In this document: in pieces, positions 25,550 through 25,896 of the stretch | Numbering within the stretch: the stretch's first letter is position 1 | Layout: each line of letters opens with the position of its first letter | Source of the DNA: Angustibacter luteus | GTDB lineage: Bacteria > Actinomycetota > Actinomycetes > Actinomycetales > Angustibacteraceae | Assembly: GCF_039541115.1 (NCBI RefSeq) | Contig: NZ_BAABFP010000007.1 | Coordinates: forward strand, 336,290-400,289 | Length of the DNA stretch: 64,000 nt | Reading direction: 5' to 3' | Translations under genes and position numbers: made by a program | The notes under the pieces: model-generated | The model's input: only the letters and a program-made list of their open reading frames with translations | Told to the model about the DNA's origin: nothing | Databases searched by the model: none

Positions 25550-25858
25550 ATGAGTGAGATGCCGAACGTGGGCCGAGTGCCAGCGTTGACGCTGGGGTGG
25601 CGCTTGAAGATGTCTCTTGGCGAGATGAAGGCCGAAGAGATGGGCGAGCTGCTGGGCGTGTCCCGGCAGACACTGAGCCGCTGGATGGGCGACAAGGGCG
25701 TACCGCGCCTGGCCTACATCAAGCAGTGGGCTCTGGCGACGGGGATCGACTACAACTGGCTGGTGTCTGGGAACGCAGAAAACCCCCGCCCGGGAGGTCC
25801 GGACGAGGGTCTGCGTACTGAAGTGCGCCATCAGGGACTCGAACCCCGAACCCGCTGA
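25550..25858 (+). CDS. Immunity repressor (HTH), 3' end inside the attachment site
   Basis: 102 residues from ATG 25550. Residues 27-50 form an HTH (KAEEMGELLGVSRQTLSRWM), followed by a helix and GIDYNWLVSGN. There is no peptidase domain, so it is not a LexA/CI-type cleavable repressor. Residues 92-102 (VRHQGLEPRTR) and the stop TGA lie inside the tRNA-Lys gene, read on the opposite strand. In mycobacteriophage BPs and relatives, attP lies in the repressor gene and integration removes a degradation tag, leaving a short active form; the size and placing here fit that model. Its mRNA would run antisense through tRNA-Lys. Confidence 0.85.
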   Translation: MSEMPNVGRVPALTLGWRLKMSLGEMKAEEMGELLGVSRQTLSRWMGDKGVPRLAYIKQWALATGIDYNWLVSGNAENPRPGGPDEGLRTEVRHQGLEPRTR

Positions 25859-25870
25859 TTAAGAGTCAGC
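25824..25870. other. Prophage attachment junction (att) in the tRNA-Lys 3' half
   Basis: The prophage abuts the 3' end of an intact tRNA-Lys gene, the classic target of tyrosine integrases. The core probably runs from the tRNA 3' end (25824) toward the anticodon loop (about 25864). The matching copy should lie left of this window, so exact limits cannot be fixed. Confidence 0.7.
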
Positions 25871-25896
25871 TGCTCTGCCAATTGAGCTAATGGCGC
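25824..25896 (-). tRNA. tRNA-Lys (anticodon CTT)
   Basis: 73 nt: acceptor GCGCCAT/ATGGCGC, D-arm GCTCAATTGGCAGAGC, anticodon loop CTCTTAA with CTT, T-loop TTCGAGT and discriminator A. CCA is not encoded. Its 3' half is probably supplied by the phage attP copy, so tRNA function is preserved after integration. Confidence 0.97.

What the first reader, a model, noticed from the sequence alone, without database searches (positions are those of the whole stretch)
25550..25896. Repressor gene ends inside the tRNA-Lys attachment site: candidate integration-dependent immunity switch
The sequence shows a 102-codon HTH gene whose last 11 codons and TGA lie in the tRNA-Lys gene at the prophage junction. 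It is divergent from an excisionase-like gene and has no CI-type peptidase domain. In BPs-like mycobacteriophages attP lies inside the repressor gene; integration swaps the 3' end, deletes a degradation tag and switches immunity on. Gene order (rep at one end, lysis genes and presumably int at the other) fits. Whether the viral form is longer depends on where the att core ends: TGA at 25856-25858 corresponds to the tRNA anticodon stem.
Basis: partly seen in the sequence, partly recalled or inferred. Interest (0 to 1): 0.85.

Follow-up and report, generated by a model that had tools for sequence, protein, structure and literature searches.

The report
Prophage repressor switched on by integration
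A dormant virus in this bacterium carries a repressor gene that spans the virus's own insertion site, so that inserting into the chromosome replaces the tail of the repressor, removes what looks like a self-destruct tag, and so probably turns the repressor on; the mechanism is known from viruses of Mycobacterium, Gordonia and Bifidobacterium, and this is a clear new example.

Summary
The finding holds. The 102-codon helix-turn-helix gene (25550-25858, +) ends inside tRNA-Lys (25823-25896, -). The other att copy lies 32.9 kb to the left, outside the window, as an exact 35-bp repeat. The core ends after the TG of the TGA stop; the next base is A from the host but G in the phage. Rejoining the ends in silico gives a 112-residue viral repressor with ten extra residues, WFSASDRLAA. 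Its LAA end is also the end of the host's own tmRNA tag (ADSKRTDFALAA). The tyrosine integrase gene starts 2 bp after that stop. Gordonia phages Coeur and Rahul carry the identical 35-bp core inside their repressor genes in the same frame (VRHQGLEPRTRWF...AA). The repressor is homologous to that of Angel (cluster G, the BPs group). No S24-type or second HTH_3-type repressor was found in the prophage. This is therefore BPs-type integration-dependent immunity, a known kind, in a host family with four genomes held. A survey of the same bacterial order found 14 tRNA-integrated prophages with the same anatomy; 7 of 14 reconstructed viral repressors end in AA, against 3.1% background and 0 of 28 control frames. 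Proteolysis and immunity themselves are inferred, not shown.

The parts
25550..25858 (+). rep, prophage (short) form, 102 aa, ends VRHQGLEPRTR-stop. Viral form reconstructed from the two att copies: 112 aa, ends VRHQGLEPRTRWFSASDRLAA
   Evidence: aligned to known immunity repressors
25823..25857 (.). att common core, right-hand copy (35 bp GTGCGCCATCAGGGACTCGAACCCCGAACCCGCTG). The left copy is outside the window at G000:C7:329206-329240 (L003 2207-2241)
   Evidence: exact repeat
25856..25858 (+). Switch codon: TGA in the prophage (TG from the core, A from the host tRNA gene); TGG in the phage
25823..25896 (-). tRNA-Lys(CTT), host attB gene, intact next to the prophage
   Evidence: ARAGORN
25443..25549 (.). 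rep/xis divergent control region (107 bp) with two direct copies TGAC(T/G)CATGTC at 25463-25473 and 25515-25525, a promoter-like TTGACG-18-CATCAT at 25514-25543, and a 15-nt inverted repeat 25435-25449/25455-25469
   Evidence: candidate operators only, picked after looking
25251..25442 (-). 63-aa HTH_17 excisionase/Cro-position protein, divergent from rep
   Evidence: Pfam HTH_17 E 5e-8, PHROG 66 excisionase E 3e-5
1..25857 (.). Right-hand 25.9 kb of the 32,941-bp prophage (att core to att core, both included). Int lies outside the window at C7:329274-330290 (+), 338 aa, ending GAASDVA
14521..16419 (-). large terminase subunit, within a head/tail module: portal 13120-14319, major head protein 10693-12171, minor tail 7386-8381, tape measure 4712-6325, endolysin 310-1269
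   Evidence: PHROGs

Best explanation
This is an integration-dependent immunity switch of the BPs type. In the infecting phage, rep runs through attP into phage DNA and encodes a 112-residue repressor whose last residues (SDRLAA) mimic the host's ssrA tag (shown: sequence; inferred: the tagged protein is destroyed by ClpXP-like proteases). The lytic programme therefore stays open unless integration happens first. Integrase, encoded 2 bp downstream of the viral rep stop, recombines the 35-bp core with the 3' half of the host tRNA-Lys gene. That joins rep to the tRNA gene, whose first non-core base turns a Trp codon (TGG) into a stop (TGA); the tag is lost and the repressor becomes 102 residues, stable and active (inferred from BPs). 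It then represses the divergent xis/early promoter, maintaining lysogeny and superinfection immunity. Integration also moves int 33 kb away from the promoter of rep (shown by anatomy), so int should no longer be expressed with rep; excision restores the tagged form.
For: Exact 35-bp att repeat and in silico attP giving the LAA-tailed 112-aa form with int adjacent. Host tmRNA tag ends FALAA. Rep is homologous to immunity repressors of Coeur, Rahul and Taheera, 39-42%, and of Angel gp33, cluster G, 35-36%; Int is 41-53% identical to the integrases of the same phages, with R202, K229, R286, H309 and Y318 kept. The identical 35-bp core sits inside rep in seven Gordonia phages, in the same frame in Coeur and Rahul. 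Independent viral forms carrying the core in metagenomic contigs L162, L166, L178 and L182 all end in AA. Order survey: 7 of 14 reconstructed viral forms end AA, 0 of 28 in the other frames, 0 of 14 prophage forms; background 38/1221, binomial P 8e-8. BPs biochemistry: PMC4557955.
Against: No proteolysis, repression or immunity was measured. The attP is reconstructed; no free copy of this phage was found in the viral contigs. The added tail is only 10 residues, against 33 in BPs, although Coeur/Rahul/GRU3 tails are similarly short. Not every relative has an AA tail (G370, G152, G333, Malithi, AGM2), so the tag is not universal. The integrase end (SDVA) is only a weak tag candidate. The survey relatives share ancestry and are not fully independent.
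Confidence: 0.9

Rival explanations
1. An ordinary tRNA-integrated prophage: rep merely overlaps att because both sit at the end of the genome, and the two forms are equally stable and active.
For: tRNA genes are common integration sites; some relatives with the same anatomy lack an AA tail (G370, G152, G333).
Against: LAA is the end of only 3/1221 background ORFs and AA of 38/1221, yet it was predicted beforehand and found. All fresh viral forms with the identical core end in AA. Homologous repressors are experimentally of the integration-dependent kind (PMC4557955).
Confidence: 0.06
2. A cryptic prophage: the truncated repressor is a by-product and not functional, and lysogeny is maintained by defects or by the host.
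For: No induction data; a SIR2-like gene and unassigned ORFs lie in the int-proximal end.
Against: Terminase, portal, head, tail, tape measure, endolysin, int and xis-like genes are all present and open; both att copies are identical.
Confidence: 0.03
3. The important consequence of integration is uncoupling int from the rep promoter, so that lysogeny is locked by loss of integrase; the change of the repressor tail is secondary.
For: In the phage rep stop and int start are 2 bp apart, in the prophage 33 kb apart.
Against: It does not explain the AA tails in the rep frame of unrelated repressors. It is compatible with the main reading rather than exclusive.
Confidence: 0.05

Closest known systems
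Mycobacteriophage BPs / cluster G (Angel, Taheera) integration-dependent immunity (gp33 rep, gp32 int, gp34)
   Same: attP inside rep; prophage form about 102-103 aa; longer viral form; rep then int on one strand; divergent xis/cro-position gene; homologous Rep (36% to Angel) and Int
   Different: tRNA-Lys core; ten extra viral residues instead of 33; tail LAA instead of the DKAS end seen in Angel; otherwise a different phage genome
Small Gordonia phages (Coeur, Rahul, GRU3, SallySpecial, EricDab, Emperor, McGonagall; cluster CW and relatives), PMC5559632
   Same: Identical 35-bp core in rep, tRNA-Lys attB, integrases 45-53% identical, short AA tails; Coeur and Rahul read the core in the same frame
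   Different: Those genomes are 16-18 kb; this prophage is 32.9 kb, in another host; the five others read the core in another frame (CAIRDSNPEPAD)
Bifidobacterium prophages Bb423phi2 and 689b-1, PMC6109161
   Same: Prophages whose reconstructed viral repressor gains a tail with an ssrA-like tag (18 residues)
   Different: tRNA-Met site, other host
M. abscessus tandem prophages prophiT36-2a/b, PMC9934374
   Same: Same defining features of the system stated there
   Different: Mycobacterial; two unrelated repressors in tandem

Membership tests
BPs-type integration-dependent immunity | attP common core lies inside the repressor reading frame | tested here: met
   35-bp core 25823-25857 inside rep; exact copy at the other prophage end
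BPs-type integration-dependent immunity | Prophage repressor shorter, with the stop supplied at the host junction | tested here: met
   102 vs 112 aa; TGA = TG of the core + host A; phage TGG
[quoted passage not shown]
   ...SDRLAA; host tmRNA tag ADSKRTDFALAA; LAA background 3/1221
BPs-type integration-dependent immunity | Order in phage: xis/cro-position gene divergent from rep, int directly downstream of rep on the same strand | tested here: met
   searches compared
BPs-type integration-dependent immunity | Repressor homologous to gp33-type immunity repressors | tested here: met
   39-42% to Coeur, Rahul and Taheera, 35% to Angel gp33, E 5e-13 to 5e-9; PHROG 2328 E 7e-23
BPs-type integration-dependent immunity | Simple arm-less tyrosine integrase | tested here: inconclusive
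   Aligns with the 266-298-aa integrases of the Gordonia phages and has only the catalytic Pfam domain; its 60-70-residue N-terminal extension was not characterised
BPs-type integration-dependent immunity | Integrase also carries a C-terminal degradation signal | tested here: inconclusive
   Ends AALGAASDVA; relatives often end WAA/VAA/AAA
BPs-type integration-dependent immunity | No separate CI/LexA-type repressor in the prophage | tested here: met
   No S24 domain between C7:329206 and 362146; only one phrog_2328/HTH_3-type hit there
BPs-type integration-dependent immunity | Long form degraded, short form stable and immunity-conferring | not testable with these tools
   needs the bench

The most novel reading that the evidence does not exclude
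Integration-dependent immunity is not a peculiarity of a few Mycobacterium, Gordonia and Bifidobacterium phages but a common way of life of tRNA-integrated prophages across a whole actinobacterial order, in which unrelated HTH domains (HTH_3 and BetR types) are repeatedly joined to a peptide encoded by the 3' end of tRNA-Lys, -Arg, -Asn or -Met and then to a degradation tag.
Probability: 0.7. Interest if true: 0.5.

Novelty: new member of a known kind. Interest (0 to 1): 0.42.

Why it matters
It shows one of the simplest known lysogeny switches, where one recombination both integrates the phage and activates its repressor, in a host for which no description was found, and here the switch comes down to one base (TGG to TGA). 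The survey suggests that the design is frequent across the order and reuses tRNA sequence as repressor sequence, which makes its evolution testable from existing genomes and gives predicted integrase/attP systems for poorly tractable hosts.

Tried and rejected
The PHROG 2328 family search is unspecific (it rings in all 14 control genomes), so the integrase was used for the survey instead. No free viral contig of this phage was found. PDB search gave no useful relative (best E 0.015). The operator motif GACNNATGTC was not found in the rep/xis gap of the other phages except Angel, so the operator idea stays a lead. In many of the integrase loci examined no tRNA att repeat was found in the stretch fetched, several of them on short contigs; these were left out of the tail counts. 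Two further loci (G137, G269) have a tRNA att repeat but no repressor-like ORF ending in it.

Full report
Observation. Codon 92 begins exactly at the tRNA boundary. The protein is an HTH of the phage CI class without a peptidase domain; the divergent 63-aa gene at 25251-25442 is an excisionase-like HTH_17 protein.

The other end. The genome holds the tRNA 3'-end probe in two places only, with up to two mismatches: here and at C7:329207, 32.9 kb to the left and outside the window. The exact repeat is 35 bp (25823-25857 = C7:329206-329240). The prophage, both cores included, is 32,941 bp, 69.5% GC against 72.2% in the host flank, and carries terminase, portal, head, tail, tape measure and endolysin genes.

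The test. Joining the right phage end through the core to the sequence after the left core gives a repressor of 112 residues: the prophage form plus WFSASDRLAA. The core ends after TG of the stop codon; the host adds A (stop), the phage adds G (Trp). The viral stop TAA is followed after 2 bp by the ATG of a 338-aa tyrosine integrase with its catalytic residues. The host's tmRNA tag is ADSKRTDFALAA, so the viral repressor ends like a tmRNA-tagged protein. In background ORFs of related genomes LAA ends 3 of 1221 and AA 38 of 1221.

Relatives. In the phage collection the repressor's best matches are annotated immunity repressors of Gordonia phages Rahul and Coeur and of cluster G mycobacteriophages (Taheera, Angel). 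The integrase's best matches are those of SallySpecial, EricDab, Emperor, Coeur and Rahul. Seven of the Gordonia phages examined carry the identical 35-bp core inside rep. Coeur and Rahul read it in the same frame (VRHQGLEPRTRWF...VVAA and ...LHAA), the other five in another frame (CAIRDSNPEPAD...), all ending AA. A pattern scan of viral contigs found the core at the end of HTH-like repressors in many more; the free-form metagenomic ones L162, L166, L178 and L182 all end AA.

Order-wide survey. The integrase has relatives at E <= 1e-30 in 51 of 396 genomes (29 of 109 genera) of the same order, this one included. DNA around a large part of these was fetched and examined. In 14 elements (including this one) an att repeat of at least 35 bp at a tRNA gene joins an ORF ending in that tRNA to a longer reconstructed form. 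The ORFs of G000 and ten others score as HTH in Pfam, while those of G152, G257 and G333 were judged by eye and not scanned. Viral ends: AA in G000, G027, G208, G302, G037, G274, G015; TA, PA, SA, VA in G261, G062, G292, G257; RS, RD, AR in G370, G152, G333. AA: 7/14 in the rep frame, 0/28 in the two other frames, 0/14 for the prophage forms; binomial P against background 8e-8, with the caveat of shared ancestry. G062 holds what looks like a tandem dimer of a 14.5-kb prophage: the middle junction is an intact attP with the long form, the end junction the short form, a natural check of the reconstruction method.

Mechanism. Shown: attP in rep, swap of the 3' end, loss of an LAA tail, physical separation of int from rep. 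Inferred from BPs, where the 136-residue form is degraded and the 103-residue form is active (PMC4557955): degradation of the 112-residue form and immunity by the 102-residue form. The control region contains the only two GAC..ATGTC sites of the 64-kb window, resembling the BPs operator CGACATATGTCG quoted in PMC4557955; this is a lead, chosen after looking.

Known or new. The system is described for mycobacteriophage clusters G, I, N, P (PMC4557955), Gordonia phages (PMC5559632), Bifidobacterium prophages (PMC6109161) and M. abscessus prophages (PMC9934374); a Streptomyces phage announcement also contains the phrase (PMC12243558, seen only, not read). This is a new member in a host family with four genomes held, whose name could not be obtained. 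The order-wide frequency is the part I did not find stated in the papers consulted.

Noticed in passing
G062:C1, around 1,706,900-1,735,500 (loci L232, L233): Apparent tandem dimer of a 14.5-kb prophage at tRNA-Lys: three att cores 14.5 kb apart, the middle one an intact attP with the long (AVPA-ending) repressor, the last with the short form; a second integrase match in that genome contains two TGA stops.
   Followed up: partly
L003 4109-5161 (G000:C7:331108-332160): SIR2-like protein near the integrase end of the prophage; weak PADLOC SIR2 match (E 2.9e-6), possible prophage-borne defence gene.
   Followed up: partly
window 20461-21552 and 21845-23683: Two neighbouring ParB-like proteins in one prophage.
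   Followed up: no
L161 (contig of 17,727 bp, the length of the GRU3 record; minus strand, cores at 3501 and 3578): The att core occurs twice 77 bp apart in a GRU3-like genome, with different open frames through the two copies.
   Followed up: no
loci, L025, L030, and G027/G062/G037 repressors: Different HTH domains (HTH_3 and BetR types) carry similar tRNA-encoded C-terminal peptides in two reading frames of the same core, suggesting modular exchange upstream of att.
   Followed up: partly
window 25435-25469: 15-nt inverted repeat (93% complementary, 5 nt apart) spanning the xis start codon.
   Followed up: no
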